Source: Halomonas sp. JB37
GTDB lineage: Bacteria; Pseudomonadota; Gammaproteobacteria; Pseudomonadales; Halomonadaceae
Reading direction: 5' to 3'
Assembly (NCBI RefSeq): GCF_002332255.1
Contig: NZ_NRGW01000001.1
Coordinates: 3,596,001-3,660,000, forward strand
Length of the DNA stretch: 64,000 nt
In this document: positions 1-11,760 of the stretch, in pieces
Layout of the letters: each line of letters starts with the position of its first letter
Position numbering within the stretch: the stretch's first letter is position 1
Translations under genes and position numbers: made by a program
Notes under the pieces: generated by a model
Databases searched by the model: none
Seen by the model: the letters and a program-made list of their open reading frames with translations, nothing else
What the model was told of the DNA's origin: nothing

Positions 1-751
1 TCAGTTTGGCGTAGCTATGCCCGACATCACCGGCCTTCTGGGTCATCTCTTCGGTGTAGGTGGCTTCATGCACCAGCACCTGCGCGCCCGCACACGCCTC
101 AAACAGCAAGTCAGGCTGGTCATTGTCCCCAGCGATCACTACTTTTCTCGGCTTGTGCTTGGATATCAGGTAGTCATGGCTTTTTAACTGCTCGCCCGCA
201 AACTCAACATCAAATCCTTGCTTCAACTGCCCCCACAATGGCCCTCTCGGAATACCCTTTTGGGTCAACTTTTCAATGTTTAAATCGGCGTCGACCTTTG
301 TCTCCGTAAACCCATAAGCATAGGACGGCGCTCGGTGTGAAAGCCTGAACGTGGACACCGCCATGCTCTCAAACTCAACGCTGGGCAGGCCGTCCGAGTC
401 GATAAACTCCAAAGCGAAGGGCAAACATAGCTGCGTTGCCTCACAGGTAGCCTCCAACCATGCTTTGATACCTGCGGGCGCCACAATGGTAAGCGGCGCT
501 TTCCGGCCACCCATTCCCGCACTCGCCAGTATGCCCGGCAGCCCATAGCAGTGGTCGCCGTGCACGTGGGTAATAAAGATGGCTTTCAATGAATGAAACG
601 ACAGCTTCGTGTGCAAAACCTGATGCTGGGTGCCCTCACCACAATCGATCAGATACCAGCCCTTCCCCTTGCTCTCTCGCAAGGCGATGCCGGAGACGTT
701 TCTGCTTTTGGTGGGTACACCGGCGGAGGTGCCTAGGAACAATAAATTCAT
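1..751 (-). CDS. rnz: Ribonuclease Z-like MBL-fold hydrolase (partial, cut by window edge)
   Basis: The frame is open from an ATG at 751 to base 1, giving 250 codons without a stop, so the C-terminus lies outside the window. The N-terminus reads [20 protein letters not shown], the typical start of ElaC/RNase Z proteins. It is followed by the metal-binding motif [12 protein letters not shown] (about residues 64-75), an AGDN segment near 208-211 and HEATYTEEMT near 228-237, the RNase Z-type HEAT motif. Members of this family are zinc-dependent phosphodiesterases that trim tRNA 3' ends; bacterial copies can have broader RNase activity. A diverged duplicate of its first 75 or so codons lies upstream (1588-1848). 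Assignment to the family is firm; the exact substrate is inferred. Confidence 0.85.
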   Translation of the reverse strand, partial: MNLLFLGTSAGVPTKSRNVSGIALRESKGKGWYLIDCGEGTQHQVLHTKLSFHSLKAIFITHVHGDHCYGLPGILASAGMGGRKAPLTIVAPAGIKAWLEATCEATQLCLPFALEFIDSDGLPSVEFESMAVSTFRLSHRAPSYAYGFTETKVDADLNIEKLTQKGIPRGPLWGQLKQGFDVEFAGEQLKSHDYLISKHKPRKVVIAGDNDQPDLLFEACAGAQVLVHEATYTEEMTQKAGDVGHSYAKL

Positions 752-795
752 ATCCTATTTGTACTCTCGCTTTGGGAACAAGGCGATGGATTGCC
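536..795. repeat. Direct repeat copy A (5' end of the rnz-like gene and upstream DNA)
   Basis: This block matches 1633-1903 in the same orientation. The match covers the first 70 or so codons of the RNase Z gene plus about 45 bp of upstream DNA, ending near the shared GGATTGCC. By eye the coding part is about 90% identical, with many changes at third codon positions. This is therefore an old or imported duplicate, not a recent tandem duplication. Confidence 0.8.
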
Positions 796-984
796 AGTCA
801 GCTCAATTTAAACAGTCATGCTTTTACGATGATGAGTAGCCGTACCTCAATGCAGTTAAGCCCTGCCAACATCCGCCAAGCTTAGGGACGCCGCTTGCAA
901 CTAAAGTATTAGTGCATCTACTACTGGCGCGGCTTTGTAGTGTGGACGAAGCCGAAACAAAAAACCGTCGCCTTATTTACATTG

Positions 985-1542
985 TTAGGTTTTGAATCCA
1001 GGTGGGATGTCCCAAAGTTGTATCTCAATATAGAGTTCAAAGTCCGTTTCCCAATATCGCTCATAAGGAACCATCTGGTCATTGTCAGGAACTCCAAACC
1101 GGTCAAAGAGCTCACTCATCTCGCTAAGCAGAAACACTTGATTGAAGTAAGGCTTATCGTCTCGGGATAACGCAATAAAGCTATCCGGATAGGTCAAGGA
1201 CGTTGTTTCAGGGTCAAGCTTCGATAGAGGTATTTTTAGCTCACTTTGGTCAGCGTTCAAATTACGAAACCAAGGAGATTCTCCAAGCACGAGATAATAG
1301 GGATGACGACGGCGCGGCTTACCTCCTCGCGCAACGAAAAGTTCACGCAGCCGTGCTTCAACCTTTGTGCGAACTTCAATTTAGTTCCTGCCGTAGCGAC
1401 GTCGATAGCCGGGATCACGCTGATGACGCGTCAGAAGATCTAAGAAGATTGGATCTTCTGAGCCCGCGGGAAGTTTGGAGAGACTCCGAAATGGGCCAAT
1501 CTCAGGTAAATAGTAGTGGGTAGTAATTTCTGGAAGTCTCAT
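985..1542 (-). pseudogene. Hypothetical protein gene broken by an in-frame TAA
   Basis: Read on the minus strand from an ATG at 1542 (an alternative GTG lies at 1578), the frame encodes 53 residues, meets TAA at 1383-1381, and continues in the same frame for 131 more residues to TAA at 987-985. The two halves read as one protein: RRRYGRN, stop, then IEVRTKVEARLRELFVARGG and later WFRNLNADQSELKIPL. There is no frameshift, only one nonsense codon, probably from a Tyr codon (TAC or TAT to TAA). The product would be a soluble protein of about 185 residues of unknown function; I recall similar hypothetical proteins in Pseudomonas-type genomes but cannot name the family. It lies between the two copies of the rnz 5' end. 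Confidence 0.6.
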
Positions 1543-1581
1543 CTCAATATCACGCCTGACAGTGATTCTGCGCGCCACTGC

Positions 1582-1620
1582 AAAACTTCAATCAATGCGC
1601 CGCGCGTTTATTGAAGTTTT
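1582..1620. repeat. Perfect 11-bp inverted repeat at the duplication junction
   Basis: AAAACTTCAAT (1582-1592) and ATTGAAGTTTT (1610-1620) are perfect reverse complements around a 17-base GC-rich loop. The element sits exactly where similarity between the truncated rnz copy and the full gene stops (1633), and just upstream of the broken hypothetical gene. There is no following T-run, so it is not a canonical terminator. It may be an operator or a rearrangement scar. Confidence 0.5.
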
Positions 1621-1848
1621 ACATCCAATCGACGGCAGCCCATAGCAGTGGTCGCCGTGTACGTGGGTAATAAAGATGGCATTCAAGGAATGGAACGACA
1701 GCTTCGTGTGCAACACCTGATGCTGGCTGCCCTCACCACAATCGATCAGGTACCAGCCCTTCCCTTTGCTCTCTCGCAAAGCGACCCCAGAGACGTTTCT
1801 TTGCTTGGTGGGCACGCCTGCGGAGGTGCCTAAGAACAGCAAATTCAT
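1588..1848 (-). pseudogene. Truncated duplicate of the rnz-like gene (5' fragment)
   Basis: The 86-codon frame repeats the N-terminus of the gene at 1-751 almost exactly ([18 protein letters not shown], then [12 protein letters not shown]) and diverges abruptly after CYGLP into an unrelated tail ending SINARRID. It keeps the metal-binding motif but lacks the other two-thirds of the fold, so it cannot form a working enzyme. The upstream sequence is partly conserved with that of the full copy, so transcription may persist. I infer it to be the stump left when DNA carrying a second version of the gene was inserted or recombined here. Confidence 0.8.
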
Positions 1849-1903
1849 AGTTTGTTCGTAATCTATTTCGGACTTGCTTTAGGAACAAGGCGGTGGATTG
1901 CCT
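1633..1903. repeat. Direct repeat copy B (rnz 5' fragment and upstream DNA)
   Basis: This is the second copy of the block at 536-795, same orientation, with the copies starting about 1.1 kb apart. It ends near the shared GGATTGCC. Downstream, 1904-2098 holds no recognisable gene. Confidence 0.8.
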
Positions 1904-2098
1904 GTTAGTCGTTCATAAAGTATCTACGAACTCTTAGACTGGTATCTTCCGGCATTGGCGTAATGTGTAATAATCGTTAGATGCTTATCGGTAGTCAGCA
2001 AAGTTTCGATTTGACCGCTGCAATTTAACTTAATGCGGGACATAAGCGGAGGGGTGAACACCTGCCGTCACCCCGTCCGTTCAATAAACTTGCTAGCG

Positions 2099-2770
2099 CT
2101 ATCCCACTCCAGTAAAGAAATGGACAAATAGAAGATTGGCCACGATACCTGTAACGACACTAGTAAATATGGAGACGCAAAACATTACCCAATCACGTTG
2201 CTGCTGCTCTAAGAACTTTGCCCGGTGCTTTTCTGCCTTCTTTGATAGGGTAACAAAACTATACGGTCTTTTGCTTGCCGATGACTCGACCCATCCTGCC
2301 AAGAGCATCGATACAATAAGCGCTAGAACCAAAAATCCTAGAGTAACGAAGGTGAAGCGCGTCCAAACTCCAGATACCAAAATATCCATAAGAAAGTCAA
2401 TCTGGGATTGCAGGTACTCGGTGCTATCTTGATTAACAGTCCGCACATTCTGAAGATTCTCAGTCTGGCCTCTCACAAACCGAGAGGAAGCCCCAAAGGC
2501 ACCGCCTATAGCCCCAAGAAAGAAAAAACTTCCTACAAAGAAACTGATACGGCGGCTATGTCGCTGAGCAAAACGAGCAAGTAAGCCCTCAACCCGCAAG
2601 AGTGATTCTACATGGCCGGAAAGAAGGGATTCGATGTCGATCCCCCAAGTGCGGTCAGTATGCCTCACTCTAAGCATGACCCCTAATTGCCCTAGCATGC
2701 GCAGCCCACTTAAAGTATCGAAGTTAACCACGATACCTCGCCGTCTGTTCATGTCGCTGATAAATGACAA
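2099..2770 (-). CDS. Hypothetical membrane protein, C-terminal part of a frameshifted gene
   Basis: About 220 residues with three strongly hydrophobic segments: ISFFVGSFFFLGAIGGAFGA (near 75-95), FTFVTLGFLVLALIVSMLLA (near 138-158) and a last one around WVMFCVSIFTSVVTGIVANL (near 193-218). The only starts at the 5' end are a TTG at 2770 and an ATG at 2752, neither with a clear ribosome-binding site. The frame is open further upstream, back to an A8 tract (T8 at 2794-2801 on the plus strand) inside the preceding gene. This strongly suggests one original protein of about 340 residues: a soluble N-terminal domain (2724-3167) followed by this membrane domain. No family is recognised. Confidence 0.6.
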   Translation of the reverse strand: MSFISDMNRRRGIVVNFDTLSGLRMLGQLGVMLRVRHTDRTWGIDIESLLSGHVESLLRVEGLLARFAQRHSRRISFFVGSFFFLGAIGGAFGASSRFVRGQTENLQNVRTVNQDSTEYLQSQIDFLMDILVSGVWTRFTFVTLGFLVLALIVSMLLAGWVESSASKRPYSFVTLSKKAEKHRAKFLEQQQRDWVMFCVSIFTSVVTGIVANLLFVHFFTGVG

Positions 2771-3167
2771 ATCTATGTCTTGCTTTTCGGGAGTTTTTTT
2801 TATTTTGAAACTTAATCAAGTAGGACCAAGACAAGACAACCCCAGTCGAGACGAGCGGCTTAACTTCAGTGTAATGCTCCATTTCATCCAGCCCATTCAA
2901 TAACACTGACGAGCTATCCTCATATAATATTCGGATCGTGAAGTGCACTAAAGAGGCTTCATTCTGCTGCCTAACCCGTTGATCAACGAGATGAAAGGTA
3001 TTAATCACATCCTGTCGCGAAACGTCGAAAGGCCCAGAAAAACCTTTTTCAATTGTTTGAGGCTTTCCAAGCAGACCCGAAACGAACTCACCGAAATCCT
3101 CAGGAGTACACGGAAGCATGATTCCGTAGCCGTTTCCCCTACCCTCTAGCTGTACGTCATGACTCAT
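2724..3167 (-). CDS. Hypothetical protein, N-terminal part of a frameshifted gene
   Basis: Starts at an ATG at 3167 (MSHDVQLEGRGNGYGIMLPC) and encodes a soluble, mixed alpha/beta-looking domain of about 120 residues. The sequence then reads KFQNKK across eight consecutive A residues and ends in a basic, low-credibility tail (SRKARHRFVIYQRHEQ). Losing one A, or a +1 shift, would instead give KFQNKKTPEKQDIDLSFIS and run into the membrane domain at 2099-2770. So the tail is probably a frameshift artefact, or the gene relies on slippage at A8. Function is unknown. It lies downstream of the condensin-like operon on the same strand, with 356 bp between them. Confidence 0.55.
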   Translation of the reverse strand: MSHDVQLEGRGNGYGIMLPCTPEDFGEFVSGLLGKPQTIEKGFSGPFDVSRQDVINTFHLVDQRVRQQNEASLVHFTIRILYEDSSSVLLNGLDEMEHYTEVKPLVSTGVVLSWSYLIKFQNKKNSRKARHRFVIYQRHEQTARYRG

Positions 3168-3523
3168 GAATATCTTACCGTCTTAGTTCTTAGGCGCTAA
3201 CACTGATTATACATCTAGCGATATAACCTCAGTGAGTGCCGATACATTTATTGAGGTTATCCTGCCTTCATAACTGACTCTAACCCTCCGCTCTTAGGAA
3301 GCAAAGCATATTTTGGCAGCGTAAACAAAATTCTCTCTGTTTCTTGCTTCTAATTCCCGCAATACTTTAATTCCATCTCTAGCTAACACAGAGGAAAGAC
3401 CGATTGAAACGAGCGAGGTGACAGTAACTCCACAATAAATAAAACATTAGGTAGCTAGTTTTATGGAGAAATTGCTACTGACAATTTTGTGAATGAACGC
3501 TTGCAGCCCAAACTCAATTGCTC
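3168..3523. other. Gene-poor AT-rich gap with an inverted repeat and a decayed reading frame
   Basis: No intact gene is seen. A 9-bp inverted repeat, ATAACCTCA (3223-3231) and TGAGGTTAT (3252-3260), lies just upstream of the frameshifted gene and could be a regulatory site. On the minus strand, 3446-3294 reads as protein-like sequence: a hydrophobic stretch with VTVTSLVSIGLSSVLA, then KVLRELEARNRENFVYAA. It has no start codon and is preceded in frame by a stop and further protein-like codons. It looks like the remains of a small membrane protein gene. Confidence 0.4.
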
Positions 3524-4405
3524 CTAACAGAGTGCGACACACCACATCTCCCCACCAAACCACTGCTGCTTGAGCCCCCGCTGCTTTTCCAACATTAACG
3601 TCAGATACTCACGCAATGGATGAGCAGATGGCAGCGCAGCAAGGTGCTTGCGCAGCCTGCGCTGGTAAGAAAACTGTTCAGCAGGCACATGCAGCGGAGT
3701 AGCATGTTGGGTGAGCCATTTGATGTCGGGCAAGAGCAAGTGAGTAGCATTGCTGTCGAGGGCTAGCGTCACACCTTTAACATCGAAGTCACCGGCATAA
3801 ATATGTGGCCTACCGGTTTTATGCCACGCATCGGCCAGCAAGGCGAAGCCGCCGCCGTAGTGGCTGTCGCCGCGGTAAACTATCAGCGGGTTAACGTAGT
3901 CGCTTAGCACTGGGCTATCGGCTGTAAACGCATAGAAGCTGTCGAGGTTTTCGACTTGAATTAAAGCGCTGAATGCGCTTAGTTTTAGCGTCTGAATATC
4001 CACATCGCGAATAGTGCTCGGCGGTTGTGCAAGCCCGTGTACGAACAACGGCGAGGCTTCCGGCGGTAGGCTGATTAATACCCGCCGTGCGCGGGGGCTT
4101 TCGCGGTTGGTTTTGTCTTCTTCTACGCCTTCTTTTGCCTGGGCGCCGCTGGCCAGGCCGCTTAGCGAGCGGCCCAGTGGCGCTATTTTTGCGCTTTCGA
4201 GTACGCCATTAATCTGTGCCAACAGCGCGGCATCAAAGCGCAGCGTTTTACCGCTTAGCCGCGCGGCTAGGTCAATATCATGCTGATGGCACCAGGCTAC
4301 CATGTCGTCTACCCACTGGCGGCGCGGGCGCACTACCGTGGGCTGCTGACAGAGCAAGCGGGCGACTTCATTAAGCCCGGTGCGCGCGCGGCTGGGTAGG
4401 TTCAT
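3524..4405 (-). CDS. jetD: JetD/MksG-like TOPRIM nuclease subunit
   Basis: 293 residues. The C-terminal half carries a TOPRIM signature: a glutamate in VENLDSFYAF (Glu152) and a DxD motif in YAGDFDVKGVTLA (Asp206, Asp208). This is the pattern of the Wadjet JetD / MksG nuclease that cuts plasmid DNA held by its SMC partner. The N-terminal 110 or so residues would be the arm that contacts the SMC complex. The start codon overlaps the stop of the upstream kleisin-like gene (ATGA at 4405-4402), so the two are translationally coupled. It is the last gene of the operon. Role in plasmid restriction is inferred from the motifs and the operon; sequence identity to characterised JetD could not be measured. 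Confidence 0.75.
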   Translation of the reverse strand: MNLPSRARTGLNEVARLLCQQPTVVRPRRQWVDDMVAWCHQHDIDLAARLSGKTLRFDAALLAQINGVLESAKIAPLGRSLSGLASGAQAKEGVEEDKTNRESPRARRVLISLPPEASPLFVHGLAQPPSTIRDVDIQTLKLSAFSALIQVENLDSFYAFTADSPVLSDYVNPLIVYRGDSHYGGGFALLADAWHKTGRPHIYAGDFDVKGVTLALDSNATHLLLPDIKWLTQHATPLHVPAEQFSYQRRLRKHLAALPSAHPLREYLTLMLEKQRGLKQQWFGGEMWCVALC

Positions 4406-5637
4406 ACCGGTACAGCCAACTGCAGTTCAACGTCATGAATCAGGCGCAGGTGATTGAAGGTACTCGCCTGGCTTTCCTGCTGTTTGAACCGAAATGCGCG
4501 CTGGTCGTTGCGCGGCAGGCCCTGGTATTCGGCAATCACCTGGAACAGCCAGATTTCATCCGGCCACTCCAGCGGGCTTTCTTGCAGATACTCAAGGGCG
4601 CTGACCGGCTCCGCCTGAGGCTGATCGATCACGCTTAGGTAGAAGTGCTCGACATCCTGTTTGAGCGCCTGCTGCCGGGCGGCGGCCATGCTAATTTGCT
4701 GGGCTTGAGCAGGGGCCGCGGCTTCTACTGACTGGGTGGTATGGCGCGGCTGGGGTAGCTGGTGCAGCAGCTCAGCCAGGGCTTGGCTGTCGAGGTTGCG
4801 GTCCAGCGCCGGGGCGGCTGCGGCGCTTAGCGGTGCGGCTTGATTCACCAGCGAGGGCACGTCGCTACGTCTTGCATAGTTGCTCGGTACAAAGCCGGGA
4901 TGTTCGCGCATAAACGCCGCCATGCCGCTAATCAGGCGGCTGCGCGCCTGCTGCTTGCGAAAGCGCGCCATGAGTTCGATCAAGCGCCGCTGCACTTCAC
5001 GCAGGCCGGTGTAGTGGTTACTTAACTGCTGCTGAAGCTGGCTGATCAATAGCTTGCGGAGGCTGCCGTCGCTGCCCACCAGTTCGATCAGCTCGTCGAA
5101 GTCGATCAGCGCTAGGCCATCCAGCAGGCGGGCGATCTGCTTTTGGGCGCGGTCGTTTTCACGGATTTTATCGTTGAGCTGGCTGACGAAACCGAAATCA
5201 CTGTTCAGCCGCTGCCATAGGCTATCAATGGCATCGGCGAAGCGGCCGTTAAGGTCATCGACTTCCTGGCGCAGGCGCATCAGTTGCTGCTCCAACCACC
5301 AGTGCTCGCCACGGCTGCGCGCTTCGCGATAGCTGTGTACCAGGGAGCGAATCAGCTCCAGGGTTTCGGCTACATCGGCGTTGACGTGGCGGCGGGTTTC
5401 GTCGGCGAGCATCTCGGCGATCAGTTCGCGCACTTTGGGCGCTAGCTTCACGCCGCTCTGCTCATCCGGCCGCCATAGAATGCGCGCCGCCAGCAGCTTA
5501 CGCAGCGCGCTGTCGCTGAGTGATTCCAGCGGCACTTCATCGCGGGTGTAGGCCTGCATCAGCGCTTCAGAATGCTTGCCCAGCAGCGCCAGCCGTTCAC
5601 TGCCGGTTTTTAGCAGGCGGCTCTCTAGCTCACTCAA
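4402..5637 (-). CDS. jetA: Kleisin-like condensin subunit (JetA/MksF-like)
   Basis: 411 residues, mostly helical, with long charged heptad-like stretches around residues 100-260 (EARSRGEHWWLEQQLMRLRQ, QLQQQLSNHYTGLREVQRRL). A proline/alanine-rich linker follows (about 270-330), then a compact C-terminal domain. This layout fits a MukF/MksF-type kleisin: N-terminal winged helix, helical neck, flexible linker, C-terminal winged helix that clamps the SMC head. It begins with TTG at 5637, overlapping the previous stop (TTGA); no ATG nearby fits better. The family is inferred mainly from position between the small subunit and the TOPRIM gene. Some homologs may be mislabelled in databases. Confidence 0.65.
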   Translation of the reverse strand: MSELESRLLKTGSERLALLGKHSEALMQAYTRDEVPLESLSDSALRKLLAARILWRPDEQSGVKLAPKVRELIAEMLADETRRHVNADVAETLELIRSLVHSYREARSRGEHWWLEQQLMRLRQEVDDLNGRFADAIDSLWQRLNSDFGFVSQLNDKIRENDRAQKQIARLLDGLALIDFDELIELVGSDGSLRKLLISQLQQQLSNHYTGLREVQRRLIELMARFRKQQARSRLISGMAAFMREHPGFVPSNYARRSDVPSLVNQAAPLSAAAAPALDRNLDSQALAELLHQLPQPRHTTQSVEAAAPAQAQQISMAAARQQALKQDVEHFYLSVIDQPQAEPVSALEYLQESPLEWPDEIWLFQVIAEYQGLPRNDQRAFRFKQQESQASTFNHLRLIHDVELQLAVPV

Positions 5638-6263
5638 AGCAGCGCCTCCTGCTTGCCCTCTTCACCTTCGGCATCAATCGGCAGGTTCTCTTCATCGCGG
5701 ATAAAGCGCACCAAGTCCACCAGGTAGTCGATCTTGCCGGTGACCACAAACACCTGCCGCTCTGAGTGCGGCTGGAGCAGGTAGCCGTGCTCTTTCAAGC
5801 GCTTGAAGACCTGCTTTACCTGGGCATCTAACTGGTCACTTTGCGAGCCAAAAAAGCTGTCGGTCGCCAGGCGTTCCAGGCGTTCGCGCAGGCTTTGGTT
5901 GTCTTCACACTTGGCGCTGAATTCCGCGGGTTTGAGGACATCGCCGGGGGCGGCCAGGGTATCGCGGCCCAGCGCCTCTTGAACCAGTTGCAGCCACTCC
6001 AGCAGCGGCAGCAGGCTATTGAGCGTATCGCCGAGCTGGCGCGAGAGCTGATCCCGGGAGCTGTCGTTAAGCTGCCGCCAAGCCAGAAAATAGACGCTGC
6101 CGTCTTCATTACTGGCCAAGCGGCGGTTCAAAGGGCGCAGATAGGCGTCAATCGCCTCGCGGGTCTCTTCATTGGCTAGGTGCCGATAGCCGCTTTCATC
6201 GCTCACCGGGCAGACAAACTCACCGGCCAGCAGGCGCTCAAGCAGTGGGCCATGTTCGATCAT
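5634..6263 (-). CDS. jetB: KITE-like small condensin subunit (JetB/MksE-like)
   Basis: 209 residues, similar in length to MksE/JetB proteins, which are tandem winged-helix KITE subunits bound to the kleisin linker. It begins MIEHGPLLERLLAGEFVCP and ends with a segment rich in beta and helix (HGYLLQPHSERQVFVVTGKI, then YLVDLVRFIRDEE). This resembles the closing winged helix of MksE-type proteins. Both ends overlap neighbours by 4 bp (ATGA at 6263, TTGA at 5637), so expression with the SMC and kleisin genes is tightly linked. Assignment rests on size, order and general character. Confidence 0.65.
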   Translation of the reverse strand: MIEHGPLLERLLAGEFVCPVSDESGYRHLANEETREAIDAYLRPLNRRLASNEDGSVYFLAWRQLNDSSRDQLSRQLGDTLNSLLPLLEWLQLVQEALGRDTLAAPGDVLKPAEFSAKCEDNQSLRERLERLATDSFFGSQSDQLDAQVKQVFKRLKEHGYLLQPHSERQVFVVTGKIDYLVDLVRFIRDEENLPIDAEGEEGKQEALL

Positions 6264-9200
6264 ACCGTCACCTCCTGCTGACGCTCCTGAAGCCGCTCGG
6301 CCAAGCGGCTTAAGCGCGGTTCAATGCGCTTTAACACCCGCTTGTTGGGCTGGGTGTCATCGCGGTCAATCAAGTAGCGGTTGGCGAACAGCAGCAGCAC
6401 GTCCGATTCAGGGTTGGGGAACGCACCTACAATGTGAATACGATTGCTGTCGCAGGCATCAAACAGCTTTTCGACGTTGTGGTACGCCAGCGTGCCAATC
6501 TCATCAATCGGCCAATGGATGGCGATTTCCGCATCACCGCGCAGCAGGCGGGTGAAGGCGAGCAGAAATTTACACAGAATCAGATACGCCATGCCGTGGC
6601 TAGAGGATTCCAACAGCTGGCGGTCGTTTTTGATAACCAGATCCGTGCCGCCTTCGTTGAGATGCAGCTCCAGGCGCAGCAGGCTTTCAAAGCTGTACTG
6701 CTGGTCGCTACGCAGCAGATCGACCACGTCCGCCAGGGTGTTTAAGTAGTCGTCGCTAGGCAGCGTTTGGCCGGATTCGCGCCATTCTTTATAGCGCTGG
6801 GCAAACAGCTTCAGCGGCTCCCAGAAGCCCAGCTCATCGATAGTCGACTGGATGCGCACTTCGGCCTTGCTGATGCCTTCCAGGCGCAGGTCATCGGCGA
6901 CTTCTTCAGACAGCCGACGGCTCTGGGCGCTGATGCGGCGGTTCAAATCGCGGAACACGGTAAAGAACTTATCCAGGTCGTCGCTGAGATTGCGCCCTTC
7001 CTGAATCAGTTGCTGCTGTTGGTCTTCGAGCAGTTTGAGCATGTCGCGCAGTAGCGGTAGCTGTAGGCGCGGGTTGTCGCTTTGCAGCTTGCTGCGCTCA
7101 CTTTCCAACGCTTCGGCAAAGCCGCTGCTGGCGTCTTTAATCAGCTGGCTTTCGACGTCTAAACAGCCACGGCGCAGCTGCTCAATCTGCTGGTGGCGGC
7201 TGCCTAATGCCTGTCGGGCGCGCTCAATGCGTTCTTCCACATCACCCAGCGCTTGGGTTGGCACTTGGCCGTCAGGTTCAATAGCCAGGCTTTCTAGCTG
7301 CGAGAGCAGTGGCTTCAACGCTTCCAGGCAGGCATGTTCGCTTTCACGCTGGGTTTTAAGCCCGCTTACAGCACTCTGGTGAGTTTTACGCGCGGCCTGA
7401 AAGTCGTTTTTGAGATGCTCTTTATCGCGTGCCAACTGCTGGTCGGCCTGCGCAAGTTCGGCTTCTTGGGCGACAAGCTGCGGCTTGTGCTGCCCCCACT
7501 CGACGCGCATAAAGCGCGTGTAGTCGGTGAGCTCATCCTGCCGCGCGGCGGTCGTGCGGATGCGCTCGTCCTGGCTCGCCAGGCGCTCTTTGGTGGCTTT
7601 GAGCTGGGCCGGGTCGACGCCTTGCTCGGCAAGCTCTTGGCTAAAGGCGTCCTCAAGCTCAGCGCGCTGGCGCTGGTGTTCAGCGTTAGCATCGCTAAGC
7701 TGCTGTTTATACTGACGCAGCTGGGCATCCAGGCTGTCTACCTGGCTTTGGCCGTCAGCTTTTAACTCTAACAGCTGGCTTTGCTGCGTTTCGCCAAGCG
7801 CCGCAAGTGCCTGCTGTTTTTCTTCACGCAGTGCGGCTTGCGCCTGCTCTTGGTTGGCTAACGCGGCCTGATGGGCGGCGCGGCGCTCCTGCTGGTGCTT
7901 GGTTTGACGCTCCTGCTGCTGGCGGCGCGCCTCTAGCGCAAACTCGACTTCCTGCTCGGCGCGCCGATGCGCCATGCGGGCCTGATCCTGGGCTTCATCG
8001 GCCTGCTGTACGCGCTCGTTGTGCTGCTTAAGCGCTTTTTCGGTTGCTTGACACTCTGACTGCACGCGCCGCTTGGCGGTATCCGCCGCTTCAATCGCGG
8101 CCAGCAGGCTGGCTTCATCCTGGGCGTAGCTCGGCAGGGCAATGGCAGAAAGATCTAATACCAATCCAAACAGGTCGTCGCTAGCGCCTTCGGCAAGCCG
8201 TGGGGCTAAATCGCGCCGCTCTAATAGCTCTGGGGCAACGACCTTGCCTAGCTGCTGCTCCCAGCCGGGGCGATGGTAGCGCAGAAAGTGGCGCAGGCTG
8301 CCCTGCTCGGGGTCACGCTGCTGATAAAGCGCAAAGCTGCGCTGCTCGGCGCGTTCAAGCTGTTGGCGAAGCTGCACCAGCTGCTGCTCAGCGGCGTCGC
8401 GTTCGCGCTTGCGGGTTTCAAACTCACGGCGTAGCCCGTCTAGGGTTGCGGCCGCCCCGCTGCGCTCCTGCTGGGCTTGGTCCAAGCGCGCCTGGGCAAG
8501 CTCCGCGTCGTTGGCCTCTTCCGTGGTTTGGCTGGTCAGTGAAAGCTGGGCTTTCAGCTCGGCTAGCTGCTCAACGCCTAGCTCTAGCTGGGCCTGATAC
8601 TCGCCCTCAAGGCGCTGGCGCTGCTGCTGATAGCGCTCATTGAGCTTCTGCTCCGCCTCCCACTGCTGTTCGCGGCGCTGGGCTTTTTCTTCCACCAAGG
8701 CGTCGATCAGCTCCTGGGCTTCACGGGTTTGGCGAGCTAACGACTCTGAGAGTTCGCGCAGCCGGCCATCCAGTCGCGCCTGGCTCTCTTTCACCGCGCC
8801 CTGCATTTCATTTAAGTGGGCCTGCAGCTGATCGCGCTGTTCGCGCCACTGGGGCAGCGCGTTGATATCGCGCTCCAGGGCGGGCATGTCCGCGTCAGAG
8901 TAGCGCTCAAACTGGGTTTGCAGATCATTGAGACGGCGCTGGGTGTGCTGTAAATCGCTGACCACTTCGCTATGGCGGTCGTTAAGCTCATCGCGCGCCT
9001 GGGCATAGCCGCTTTCACGCTGCTGAAACTCGCGCTGATGGCGAGTAAGTTCAGCGTCCACGTCGGCCATACGCCGCTCTGCCCGCTGGCGGTCATCTTC
9101 AAGCTGAGGCTTTAGCTGCCATAGCGTGGCGTCTAAATGGGCTAGCTCGCGGTCGATACCGGCCAACCGAGCCAGCGATGCCTGCAGCGGCTCTAGCCGC

Positions 9201-9925
9201 ATGGATTGGCGCATCTGGGCAATCCACTCGCGCGCTTTGGTATTGCGAATGCGCGTGACCGGAAGCTCAACGCCGTCTTCTTCAAAAATAGCCGCCAGCA
9301 TGGTTTTGAGGGTGTCCATCTTGCCCTCTTTGGCATGCACCGCGGAAACCAGCTTTTCGATATGGCGAATGCGGCGCTCGGGTTTGACCAGGCTAAACTG
9401 CGCCGCGATTTGGCGCAGTTTGAGGCCATCGCGGCTGTTGCCATGCAGCTGGGTAAAGTCGTTTTGAATCACCGAGCGAAATTCAGAGGTCGCGCCCAGC
9501 TTGGACGACACCGGCGTGCCGCTGCGACGCAGGCCGCTGGCCCACTGGCTGTAATCCAGCGCGGCCACGCCCGCCTCGCTTTCAACCAAGTAATCTTCCG
9601 GCTGATAGGGCCCGCCAACAAAGCGGTACTCGACCCCGCCTTCGGCTTTACGCGTGAGCACCGCCTGGCAAACATTGCCCGCTTCGCGACGATATTCGTA
9701 CACCAGGTAGCTATTGCGATGAGGCAAATAAAACGCATCGAACTTCATGCGGGTTTTCGGCACGACCTTATTAGGCAGTTCGCCGTAAAACACCGGCACC
9801 AACCGCTGCAGCGTGGTTTTGCCTGAGGCATTGGTGCCACAAATATTGGTGTGTCCGTCCACACTCAGTTCCACCACCCCTTCCAGGTGGCCGTGAATCA
9901 TCACGATGCGTAGCAGGTGGGCCAT
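6260..9925 (-). CDS. jetC: SMC/MukB-like ATPase of a Wadjet-type condensin (JetC/MksB-like)
   Basis: 1221 residues. The Walker A motif GTNASGKTT is at residues 30-38. A signature-like SSHGMAYLI starts near 1108, and Walker B IHWPIDEIG has Asp1141-Glu1142. Between them is a very long Gln/Glu/Arg-rich coiled coil (roughly 230-1040), broken near 530-620 by a more hydrophobic, less charged stretch that could be the hinge. ATP-driven loop extrusion by such proteins lets Wadjet sense small circular DNA. It starts at the ATG at 9925, preceded by AAAGGA. It is the first gene of the operon, whereas classic jetABCD and mksFEBG operons place the SMC third. Confidence 0.85.
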   Translation of the reverse strand: MAHLLRIVMIHGHLEGVVELSVDGHTNICGTNASGKTTLQRLVPVFYGELPNKVVPKTRMKFDAFYLPHRNSYLVYEYRREAGNVCQAVLTRKAEGGVEYRFVGGPYQPEDYLVESEAGVAALDYSQWASGLRRSGTPVSSKLGATSEFRSVIQNDFTQLHGNSRDGLKLRQIAAQFSLVKPERRIRHIEKLVSAVHAKEGKMDTLKTMLAAIFEEDGVELPVTRIRNTKAREWIAQMRQSMRLEPLQASLARLAGIDRELAHLDATLWQLKPQLEDDRQRAERRMADVDAELTRHQREFQQRESGYAQARDELNDRHSEVVSDLQHTQRRLNDLQTQFERYSDADMPALERDINALPQWREQRDQLQAHLNEMQGAVKESQARLDGRLRELSESLARQTREAQELIDALVEEKAQRREQQWEAEQKLNERYQQQRQRLEGEYQAQLELGVEQLAELKAQLSLTSQTTEEANDAELAQARLDQAQQERSGAAATLDGLRREFETRKRERDAAEQQLVQLRQQLERAEQRSFALYQQRDPEQGSLRHFLRYHRPGWEQQLGKVVAPELLERRDLAPRLAEGASDDLFGLVLDLSAIALPSYAQDEASLLAAIEAADTAKRRVQSECQATEKALKQHNERVQQADEAQDQARMAHRRAEQEVEFALEARRQQQERQTKHQQERRAAHQAALANQEQAQAALREEKQQALAALGETQQSQLLELKADGQSQVDSLDAQLRQYKQQLSDANAEHQRQRAELEDAFSQELAEQGVDPAQLKATKERLASQDERIRTTAARQDELTDYTRFMRVEWGQHKPQLVAQEAELAQADQQLARDKEHLKNDFQAARKTHQSAVSGLKTQRESEHACLEALKPLLSQLESLAIEPDGQVPTQALGDVEERIERARQALGSRHQQIEQLRRGCLDVESQLIKDASSGFAEALESERSKLQSDNPRLQLPLLRDMLKLLEDQQQQLIQEGRNLSDDLDKFFTVFRDLNRRISAQSRRLSEEVADDLRLEGISKAEVRIQSTIDELGFWEPLKLFAQRYKEWRESGQTLPSDDYLNTLADVVDLLRSDQQYSFESLLRLELHLNEGGTDLVIKNDRQLLESSSHGMAYLILCKFLLAFTRLLRGDAEIAIHWPIDEIGTLAYHNVEKLFDACDSNRIHIVGAFPNPESDVLLLFANRYLIDRDDTQPNKRVLKRIEPRLSRLAERLQERQQEVTV

Positions 9926-9937
9926 GCCGTGTCCTTT

Positions 9938-9966
9938 CGTTTGCTGATCGAATCGTTTTGCTGATC
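9938..9966. promoter_or_regulatory. Direct repeats upstream of the SMC gene
   Basis: CGTTTGCTGATC (9938-9949) and CGTTTTGCTGATC (9954-9966) are near-identical direct repeats 16-17 bp apart, 13-41 bp upstream of the SMC start codon. The spacing of about one and a half helical turns suits a regulator or a leader element. No clear sigma-70 boxes could be assigned with confidence in the 123-bp gap. Confidence 0.4.
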
Positions 9967-10048
9967 AAAGAAAGCGACTATCTTGCCAGACACATTGATA
10001 GCTTGTCTTACTCTTATCGAGCGTTTGGATTCGGCATTGCCACCAGTA

Positions 10049-11071
10049 TCAAGCGGTACCCAGCAACCCTGCAAAAAAACTCACCGCGTTGGCTTCCAAC
10101 CCTTCAAGGTAATATCCGCCTTCCTGCACCACCAGCGTAGGTACATTCAAGCCGGCTACTTTACGGCCTAGCTCACAAAACCCTGGGGTTGAAACAGTCA
10201 CCTTGGCTTGGGGGTCAAGCGCGTAAATGTCGAATCCCAGCGCCAGCACTATCGCATCGGGTTCAAATAGCCGAATGGCCTGGCAGGCTTGTTCCAGGCG
10301 ATCAAAAAACACCGATTCCGGTGAACCGTGGGGCATCGGCAGGTTGAGGTTGTAGCCCAGCCCGGCACCCTGCCCACGCTCGTCTTCAAAGCCGGTTACT
10401 GCGGGGTAAAAGTTGGTGGTATCACCGTGAATCGAGATATACAGCACATCGTCGCGCTGGTAGAAGATTTCCTGAATACCCTGCCCATGATGCATGTCAG
10501 GGTCTAACACCACGATGCGCGGGTAGCGCGTTTTAAGATGCTGCGCGGCAATGGCGGCATTATTGAGAAAGCAAAAGCCACCGGCGGAGTCGATGCCTGC
10601 GTGATGACCCGGCGGGCGCGATAGCGCATAGGCAAACCGATCGCCCGCCAGCAAGGCCTCGGCACCGGCCACCGCGCTTTGCGCTGACCAGTAAGCCGAC
10701 TGCCAAGTATGTTGCCCAACCGGTGCGCTGCCGTCTGCCAGGTAGCGTGCGGCTTCTGCCAAGATGCCGCGCAGGGCGTTGGGCGAGCGCACGAAGATAT
10801 TGGAGATCACCTCTTCCCCCCAGTCTTCTTCAAGCTCATGCCAGCGCCGATAAGCACTTTTAAGAAAACGCAGATAGGCAAACGAATGGACCGCCCTTAG
10901 CGGCGCCACGCCGTAATCCAGGGGTTCCTGGACATCAAAACCAAGACGTTTAGCGGCTGCCAGTAGCTGCGTGGCGCGCTCGGGCACTTCCTGGGGCGTG
11001 CGCATTTTCCCGCGGGAGAAGTAGGTTTGCGGCTGATGGAGCAGTTGCTCAGCGTGGAAGAATGTTTTCAT
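10049..11071 (-). CDS. Histone-deacetylase-family amidohydrolase (acetylpolyamine amidohydrolase type)
   Basis: 340 residues covering a full HDAC-like fold. Motifs seen: SRPPGHHAG (His156/His157, general base pair), LDPDMHHGQG (zinc ligands Asp192 and His194), LGFDIYALDP (third zinc ligand) and QEGGYYLEGL (catalytic Tyr). Bacterial members remove acetyl or other acyl groups from small amines such as acetylpolyamines. The start ATG overlaps the stop of the GntR gene by one base (TGATG), so regulator and enzyme form an operon. It is the first of three family members in 12.7 kb. The substrate is not known. Confidence 0.85.
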   Translation of the reverse strand: MKTFFHAEQLLHQPQTYFSRGKMRTPQEVPERATQLLAAAKRLGFDVQEPLDYGVAPLRAVHSFAYLRFLKSAYRRWHELEEDWGEEVISNIFVRSPNALRGILAEAARYLADGSAPVGQHTWQSAYWSAQSAVAGAEALLAGDRFAYALSRPPGHHAGIDSAGGFCFLNNAAIAAQHLKTRYPRIVVLDPDMHHGQGIQEIFYQRDDVLYISIHGDTTNFYPAVTGFEDERGQGAGLGYNLNLPMPHGSPESVFFDRLEQACQAIRLFEPDAIVLALGFDIYALDPQAKVTVSTPGFCELGRKVAGLNVPTLVVQEGGYYLEGLEANAVSFFAGLLGTA

Positions 11072-11760
11072 CAGTATGCCACCCCTATTTCGCCCACACC
11101 CTTTACTACGGAGTCGCGGGCCACGCCGATATGGTAGTCAATTGCCTCGCGGCAAGCCTCAGGGCTGCCGCTATCCAGCGCATCGAGCAGTTTGAAGTGG
11201 CTGGTCGCGATGGTGTCGGGGGCTTCATGCGTTTTGGTAATTAAGGTAATGCATAAGCGCAGCTCGTGACTCAAGTCGTTAAAGGCGCGCAGCAGCCGCT
11301 CGTTGCCCGCGTAGTGCAGCATTAAACGATGAAACTGCAGATCCTCTTCAATACGGCGCGTGCCGTCGTTACCGATGGCGGCCTCACAGAGCACCTCTAC
11401 CTGTTGCTTTAGCGCGCGCTGGGCATCGGGAGTATAGCGGCCGACTAGGCAATGGATCGCATGACGCTCCAGGCACAGGCGAAAATCAAAGACATCTTCG
11501 AGTTCAACGGCATTCAACGCCCTAACAAAGAAGCCGCGCCGGGGTTTTGATATCAGCAGCCCGCGGCTTTCCAACAGGCGCGCCGCCTCTCGCACCGGTG
11601 CACGGCTAACGCCCAAGTCGCGGGAAAGCTGCACTTCTGAAAGCCGTTCACCGGGTAAAAAATGCTGCTTAACAATCGCTTGGGTCAAGTAGTCGGCAAC
11701 TTGCTCGGCTAAGTTTTGCTGTTGAATAAAGGCCTTGGGAGGCACCGTTGATGAGACCAT
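11071..11760 (-). CDS. GntR-family (FadR-type) transcriptional regulator
   Basis: 229 residues. The N-terminal winged helix-turn-helix carries the family pattern LPGERLSEVQLSRDLGVSRA followed by VREAARLLESRGLL (about residues 35-72). The C-terminal two-thirds is an all-helical FCD-type effector domain that usually binds carboxylates or amino acids. It is the first gene of an operon with the deacetylase-like enzyme and diverges from a peptide ABC transporter. It probably controls both from the 215-bp shared promoter region, where GTCGAC-centred palindromes occur. Confidence 0.85.
   Translation of the reverse strand: MVSSTVPPKAFIQQQNLAEQVADYLTQAIVKQHFLPGERLSEVQLSRDLGVSRAPVREAARLLESRGLLISKPRRGFFVRALNAVELEDVFDFRLCLERHAIHCLVGRYTPDAQRALKQQVEVLCEAAIGNDGTRRIEEDLQFHRLMLHYAGNERLLRAFNDLSHELRLCITLITKTHEAPDTIATSHFKLLDALDSGSPEACREAIDYHIGVARDSVVKGVGEIGVAY

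What the first reader, a model, noticed from the sequence alone, without database searches (positions are those of the whole stretch)
3524..9925. Wadjet/MksBEFG-like condensin system with SMC-first gene order
Four overlapping genes encode a MukB-like SMC (Walker A GTNASGKTT, Walker B IHWPIDEIG), a KITE-sized subunit, a kleisin-like subunit and a TOPRIM protein. In known Wadjet and MksBEFG operons the order is kleisin, KITE, SMC, nuclease. Here it is SMC, KITE, kleisin, nuclease, which suggests a distinct subtype of this plasmid-defence family.
Basis: partly seen in the sequence, partly recalled or inferred. Interest (0 to 1): 0.85.

Follow-up and report, generated by a model that had tools for sequence, protein, structure and literature searches.

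The report
Nuclease-armed condensin with reversed gene order
Four neighbouring genes in a Halomonas-type bacterium appear to build a DNA-looping motor joined to a DNA-cutting enzyme, distantly related to a known anti-plasmid machine but from a separate lineage in which the cutter has been gained or dropped many times.

Summary
The operon is real: on the minus strand SMC (1221 aa), KITE (209), kleisin (411) and TOPRIM (293), each overlapping the next by 4 bp. The SMC is full-length Pfam DUF3584 (746 bits). The KITE family matches Pfam MksE in 25 of 27 relatives. The kleisin is supported only by weak structural resemblance to MukF. The TOPRIM fold matches Topo VI-A, MksG and JetD; its acidic triad is conserved in 21 of 21.

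PADLOC profiles do not place it in Wadjet I, II or III. SMC-first order is typical of this lineage in Pseudomonadota, but order is labile more widely.

Two results temper "plasmid defence". The host strain, with all four genes intact, carries an 11-kb circular plasmid, as do three congeners carry small ones. In one other family, 34 of 37 loci lack the TOPRIM; the SMC tree needs at least 8 gains or losses of it.

Most likely this is a MukBEF/Mks-superfamily loop extruder with an optional JetD-like nuclease, working like Wadjet in principle. Its target is unproven.

The parts
6260..9925 (-). SMC ATPase, 1221 aa; Walker A GTNASGKTT (K36), Walker B D1141-E1142, conserved S1109/G1111 in the presumed signature loop
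   Evidence: Pfam DUF3584 residues 8-1187, 746 bits; invariant columns in 27 relatives include G35, K36, S1109, G1111, D1141, E1142; hhalign to type I JetC 95.6%, E 1.1e-8, N-terminal head region only
5634..6263 (-). KITE (MksE/JetB-like) subunit, 209 aa
   Evidence: DUF4194 22.4 bits, below cut-off; 25 of 27 relatives match Pfam MksE, best 1e-12; hhalign to JetB1 only 18.9%, E 0.0012
4402..5637 (-). kleisin (MukF-like) subunit, 411 aa, TTG start
   Evidence: AlphaFold2 model with N-terminal helices, long helical middle and a C-terminal winged-helix-like end; MukF-containing entries lead both structure lists, weakly; no sequence match to JetA
3524..4405 (-). short TOPRIM nuclease subunit (JetD/MksG/Topo VI-A-like), 293 aa; triad E152, D206, D208
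   Evidence: Pfam DUF7281 55 bits; fold matches 8b7f MksG Z 10.7, 7til JetD Z 9.1; hhalign to JetD1 93.7%, E 1.9e-7 over 64 columns; triad in 21 of 21 aligned relatives
10049..11071 (-). histone-deacetylase-family protein, conserved upstream neighbour (not part of the system)
   Evidence: Pfam Hist_deacetyl 231 bits; found within the flanks of 17 of 29 same-genus loci L003-L031

Best explanation
The operon encodes a dimeric SMC-kleisin-KITE complex of the MukBEF/MksBEF superfamily that binds DNA and, driven by ATP, extrudes loops; the fourth subunit, a short Topo VI-A/JetD-type TOPRIM nuclease, is recruited to the motor and cuts DNA when extrusion ends on an abnormal substrate (inferred by analogy with Wadjet). 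The nuclease is an optional module: the same SMC-KITE-kleisin core is kept without it in most of a sampled related family, so the core most likely also has a nuclease-independent job such as chromosome handling. Shown here: four subunits, intact catalytic motifs, purifying selection, conserved order, repeated presence/absence changes of the nuclease. Inferred: assembly, loop extrusion, nuclease recruitment, target. Against which DNA it acts is open; blanket exclusion of small plasmids is unlikely.
For: Subunit assignments. Walker residues invariant in 27 SMCs and TOPRIM triad invariant in 21. In the genus 52 of 55 TOPRIM genes keep the E and DxD motifs in one open frame. dN/dS 0.03-0.24 for all four genes in 19 of 20 pairwise comparisons, the twentieth being saturated. 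Eight unbroken plasmid loci all keep the TOPRIM, one copy being IS-broken cargo beside Tn7-like transposition genes. 34 of 37 loci in the family of G329, from 24 genera, keep intact SMC-KITE-kleisin without TOPRIM.
Against: No activity data. The kleisin is identified only by a modest-confidence model with weak structure scores. The TOPRIM is about 110 residues shorter than the 402-aa type I JetD of L124 and lacks its DUF3322 domain, so it may be recruited or regulated differently. The host keeps an 11.1-kb circular plasmid. The TOPRIM has higher dN/dS than the SMC in all 4 usable comparisons and is truncated or split in 3 of 55 loci.
Confidence: 0.6

Rival explanations
1. A true plasmid-restriction system, a further Wadjet type, that cuts small circular plasmids; the plasmids now found beside it have evaded it.
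For: Same four subunit classes as JetABCD; JetD-like TOPRIM; the armed form occurs on plasmids and in a record with Tn7-like genes. Wadjet is reported to show near-complete mutual exclusion with plasmids under 40 kb in Bacillota (PMC12287153, abstract and passages), so evasion would be selected.
Against: Among good-quality genomes of the genus, Rep_3 replicons occur in 8 of 64 system-positive and 0 of 9 system-negative genomes, so no depletion is seen (numbers small; Rep_3 is one replicon type only). Four system-positive strains with intact TOPRIM have plasmids of 4.4-11.1 kb with evidence of circularity.
Confidence: 0.2
2. Mainly a chromosome-organising condensin (an MksBEF analogue), the TOPRIM being an accessory for resolving or cutting tangled DNA rather than a weapon.
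For: 69 of 82 genomes of the genus match the SMC, 64 of 73 of good quality, often beside the same neighbour genes (17 of 29); TOPRIM-free forms in 24 genera of another family.
Against: The host already has ScpA, hence presumably Smc-ScpAB. 13 of 82 congeners lack the SMC, so it is dispensable. Full-length copies are patchy across the phylum (13 of 299), occur on plasmids and form long branches in the tree.
Confidence: 0.15
3. A Lamassu/Rad50-like or other SMC-type abortive system in which the middle genes are not kleisin and KITE.
For: Weak LmuB profile matches of the SMC (E 8e-4 and 0.07), mostly in the coiled coil.
Against: MksE matches in 25 of 27 KITE relatives; MukF leads the structure lists for the kleisin; no Lamassu effector match in any of the four proteins.
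Confidence: 0.05

Closest known systems
Wadjet (JetABCD), types I-III
   Same: SMC + KITE + kleisin + TOPRIM in one operon; TOPRIM of the JetD/MksG fold; SMC head and TOPRIM core detectably related by profile comparison
   Different: No full-length PADLOC Jet match for any subunit; TOPRIM short, DUF7281 and without DUF3322; order C-B-A-D instead of A-B-C-D as in L124; the L124 type I JetC does not match Pfam DUF3584 at E<=0.01
MksBEF / MksBEFG
   Same: KITE relatives match Pfam MksE (25 of 27); nuclease-armed and nuclease-free versions both exist here
   Different: mksFEBG order is kleisin-KITE-SMC-nuclease (PMC10123090 passages); here SMC-KITE-kleisin(-TOPRIM)
MukBEF
   Same: Kleisin model closest to MukF
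   Different: No MukB match in the host genome (Pfam MukB); MukBEF has no nuclease subunit and the order mukF-mukE-mukB (recalled)
Topoisomerase VI A / Spo11
   Same: TOPRIM fold and acidic triad (Top6A E202/D254/D256, PMC13040014 passages)
   Different: Short N-terminal part; a catalytic tyrosine was not looked for

Membership tests
Wadjet type I, II or III | Four subunits: SMC, KITE, kleisin, TOPRIM nuclease in one operon | tested here: met
   (kleisin by weak structural evidence only)
Wadjet type I, II or III | Subunits match JetA/JetB/JetC/JetD profiles over most of their length | tested here: not met
   JetC1 E 6.6e-5 over 42 residues only; JetD1 0.003, JetD2 0.0036, JetD3 0.047; nothing for JetA or JetB up to E 0.1. 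Positive control L124: all four subunits matched strongly
Wadjet type I | JetD with N-terminal DUF3322 and C-terminal JetD_C | tested here: not met
   (DUF7281 only) against L124 JetD
Wadjet type I | Gene order kleisin-KITE-SMC-nuclease | tested here: not met
   comparison locus L124 typed
Wadjet types II and III | Gene order of these types | not tested
   no type II or III locus was obtained (JetD2 search rang nowhere, controls included; JetD3 matches were weak and fell in 8 genomes that all also matched JetD1)
Wadjet | Restriction of small circular plasmids | not testable with these tools
   genomic proxy only: Rep_3 replicons in 9 of 69 system-positive and 3 of 13 system-negative genomes; 8 of 64 and 0 of 9 among good-quality ones
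MksBEF(G) | KITE subunit of the MksE family | tested here: inconclusive
   25 of 27 relatives match PF21980, but the window's own protein shows only DUF4194 at E<=0.01
MksBEF(G) | Order mksF-mksE-mksB(-mksG) | tested here: not met
   order from PMC10123090 passages
MukBEF | SMC with the Pfam MukB N-terminal domain | tested here: not met
   no PF04310 match in the host genome; control rings in E. coli
Topo VI-A/JetD-type TOPRIM nucleases | TOPRIM fold with E ... DxD acidic triad | tested here: met
   nuclease activity itself not tested
Lamassu | LmuB plus effector LmuA | tested here: not met
   weak LmuB matches of the SMC, no LmuA match in the four proteins

The most novel reading that the evidence does not exclude
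This is a separate lineage of bacterial SMC-kleisin complexes, not a Wadjet type, in which one and the same motor has switched many times between a nuclease-armed form (Halomonas genus, plasmids) and an unarmed chromosomal condensin (Alteromonadaceae-type genomes), a living record of the MukBEF/Wadjet transition, with gene order reshuffled among several short-TOPRIM relatives.
Probability: 0.45. Interest if true: 0.75.

Novelty: new variant of a known kind. Interest (0 to 1): 0.62.

Why it matters
Reviewers of the field already ask whether MukBEF and MksBEF descend from defence systems (PMC10586767 passages). Here the same complex exists with and without its nuclease in dozens of related genomes, so the question becomes directly testable: compare armed and unarmed siblings for plasmid or phage restriction and for chromosome organisation. 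It also shows that PADLOC-DB 2.0.0 profiles do not call this system, and that its TOPRIM and SMC sit in Pfam only as domains of unknown function (DUF7281, DUF3584).

Tried and rejected
Filing it as Wadjet I, II or III: rejected on profiles. Sequence search of solved structures: SMC alone gave only chance coiled-coil hits and its profile gave weak hits, best a Smc coiled coil 3.5e-6, with no JetC or MukB among the 60 rows shown of 126; TOPRIM alone nothing, its profile MksG at E 1.0; KITE and kleisin profiles nothing relevant. Kleisin to JetA by hhalign: nothing. In the VIA list for the kleisin, Wadjet-II JetABC entry 9qe1 appears at Z 9.8, below unrelated STAT and syntaxin rows, so the kleisin fold rests on MukF only. 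Residue 281 of the TOPRIM is Q here and E in the plasmid rows; I considered equating it with Top6A E342 and dropped it, since no structural superposition at that residue was made. Type II JetD search rang nowhere, controls included.

Literature: searches listed no paper on this system. DUF7281 is in no held paper. DUF3584 is in five; I read passages of two (PMC9674854, a Methanoperedens plasmid SMC in a seven-gene cluster; PMC5735904, a weak phage hit) and saw the others only in the listing. Subscription papers and preprints are mostly not held; the 2011 MksBEF paper and the 2020 ABC-ATPase classification (not held) could mention it.
Full report
What is there. Four genes on the minus strand, 9925 to 3524, overlap by 4 bp each: SMC, KITE, kleisin, TOPRIM. 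The SMC is a full-length member of Pfam DUF3584 (746 bits). The KITE gene alone gives only a sub-threshold DUF4194 match, but 25 of 27 relatives match Pfam MksE. The TOPRIM is Pfam DUF7281 (55 bits). The kleisin gene has no informative profile match.

Structures. The kleisin model (18-row alignment, pLDDT 77, pTM 0.43) has MukF-containing entries as its first seven Foldseek rows, none better than E 0.012, and as its first six VIA-align rows (Z 12.6-13.3). Unrelated helical proteins reach Z 12.3 in the same list, so this is support, not proof; operon position and size agree. The TOPRIM model (13-row alignment, pLDDT 82) matches Topo VI-A, MksG, JetD and Spo11 (Z 8.3-10.7) and then drops to 5.1. 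The triad E152, D206, D208 is invariant in 21 aligned relatives; the mapping to the Top6A triad E202/D254/D256 (PMC13040014, passages) is inferred from the alignment pattern.

Relation to Wadjet. No PADLOC Jet profile covers any subunit, whereas a type I locus used as a positive control (L124) is typed in all four genes, in the order A-B-C-D. Profile-profile comparison with small type I alignments finds kinship for the SMC head (95.6%) and TOPRIM core (93.7%), little for the KITE (18.9%) and none for the kleisin (0.1%). The L124 JetC does not match DUF3584 at E<=0.01, although PADLOC describes JetC by that name.

Distribution. In an even sample of Pseudomonadota, 30 of 299 genomes match the SMC profile, of which 13 are full-length (564-1527 bits) and 17 are weak or partial; 8 of the 13 have the TOPRIM, and the other 5 have no DUF7281 match anywhere in the genome at E<=0.001. 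DUF7281 itself is found in 9 of 299. In the host genus 69 of 82 genomes match, 64 of 73 of good quality; 2 of the 69 only by a 26-27% identical copy and several in pieces or with stops. Of the 69, I opened 65: the window, 6 and 58; G363, G367, G392 and G017 were not opened. All 6 and 55 of the 58 are in the order SMC-KITE-kleisin-TOPRIM; 3 of the 58 lie at contig ends and show SMC-KITE-kleisin only. The TOPRIM motifs lie in one open frame in 52 of 55; 3 are truncated or split. A histone-deacetylase-family neighbour is found in 17 of 29 loci, which points to long vertical residence. tblastn finds the SMC in 41 of 72,556 plasmid records and 1 of 50,697 phage records. I opened 11 of the 41: eight have the unbroken four-gene order, one has the same order with an IS-broken SMC and Tn7-like genes beside it, one is an SMC fragment, and one (Phocaeicola) has the order A-B-C-D.

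Gene order is labile. The Phocaeicola operon (L243) reads 399 aa, MksE (144 bits), DUF3584 SMC (216 bits), DUF7281-like TOPRIM (22.9 bits, below cut-off). In genome G191, L116 reads 424 aa, MksE (100 bits), 923-aa SMC-like, DUF7281 (38.7 bits), and L115 reads TOPRIM, 998-aa SMC, 472 aa, MksE (45.9 bits). L134 and L135 resemble L115, with sub-threshold JetD_C matches. Kleisins in these loci are assigned by position only.

The nuclease is optional. In the family of genome G329 (unnamed; the Alteromonadaceae member Salinimonas chungwhensis groups inside it), 45 of 79 genomes match, 37 with a full-length SMC in 25 genera. Opening all 37 loci, 34 have SMC-KITE-kleisin and no TOPRIM, with at least 2.2 kb searched downstream of the kleisin; 3 have a TOPRIM with its motifs. 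A 59-row tree, quick method without bootstrap and with long-branch warnings, needs at least 8 changes of TOPRIM presence (7 forced by well-supported branches) and holds a clade of 27 rows that are all three-gene. The earlier careful 27-row tree needed 3. As TOPRIM-bearing rows fill the deep branches, I read these as mostly losses; the trees do not prove direction.

Selection. Nei-Gojobori dN/dS between the window and five congeners is 0.03-0.24 for all four genes in 19 of 20 comparisons (one saturated; several dS exceed 1, so values are rough). The TOPRIM is less constrained than the SMC in all 4 usable comparisons.

Plasmids beside the system. The second contig of the host genome is 11,181 bp with a 55-bp terminal repeat and encodes Rep_3, a relaxase, MobC and ParE: a small circular plasmid. 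Rep_3 replicons occur in 12 of 82 genomes of the genus: 9 of 69 with the SMC and 3 of 13 without; among good-quality genomes 8 of 64 and 0 of 9. Four system-positive strains with intact TOPRIM have plasmids with evidence of circularity: G000 (11.2-kb contig), G018 (9.0 kb) and G019 (7.6 kb) by terminal repeats, and G002 (4.4 kb), identical to the circular plasmid p2-bachu37 of Halomonas sp. Bachu 37. This contrasts with the near mutual exclusion of plasmids under 40 kb and jetABCD reported for Bacillota (PMC12287153, abstract and passages). It does not exclude evasion, and Rep_3 is only one replicon type.

How it most likely works. By analogy with Wadjet and MukBEF, the SMC dimer bridged by the kleisin and bound by the KITE extrudes DNA loops with ATP; the TOPRIM dimer is held inactive and cuts when DNA is bent into its active site at the end of extrusion. 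Every step after subunit identity is inferred. The host also has ScpA and no MukB, so this need not be its main condensin.

Verdict. A real, conserved and, as far as the held literature shows, undescribed relative of Wadjet and MksBEFG. It is best ranked as a new variant of a known kind; its chief interest is the repeated arming or disarming of one motor.

Noticed in passing
G000 contig 2 (L137), 1-11181: Small circular mobilizable plasmid (Rep_3, relaxase, MobC, ParE) living beside an intact operon in the window's own genome.
   Followed up: yes
L115 4479-10349, L134 6323-11995, L135 6533-12279: TOPRIM-first SMC operons (apparently D-C-A-B) with about 990-aa SMC and MksE-like KITE (KITE tested in L115 and L135 only); L115 SMC, 472-aa and KITE genes have no full-length PADLOC match.
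   Followed up: partly
L116 3356-8876: A-B-C-D operon with a 923-aa AAA_15-type SMC, MksE KITE and a DUF7281 TOPRIM, in the same genome (G191) as L115 and L134.
   Followed up: partly
L243 6227-12556: Bacteroidota (Phocaeicola) plasmid operon with a DUF3584 SMC in A-B-C-D order.
   Followed up: partly
L051 11968-18323: Complete four-gene system in PP438435.1, deposited as Dolichospermum phage Dfl-JY45; phage nature not confirmed by 10 proteins tested.
   Followed up: partly
L038 7983-15733: Copy on an Enterobacter IncC plasmid next to Tn7-like transposition genes, SMC interrupted by an IS256-like element.
   Followed up: partly
window 3524-4405 (TOPRIM residue 281): Residue 281 is Q in the window, genus, Alteromonadales-type and phage-record copies but E in all 7 plasmid rows and in L113 and L114.
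   Followed up: no
window 1-3500: Lower G+C (about 0.47-0.50 against 0.55-0.60) flank downstream of the operon with a short metallo-beta-lactamase-fold (tRNase Z-like) ORF of 86 aa and ORFs without Pfam match.
   Followed up: partly
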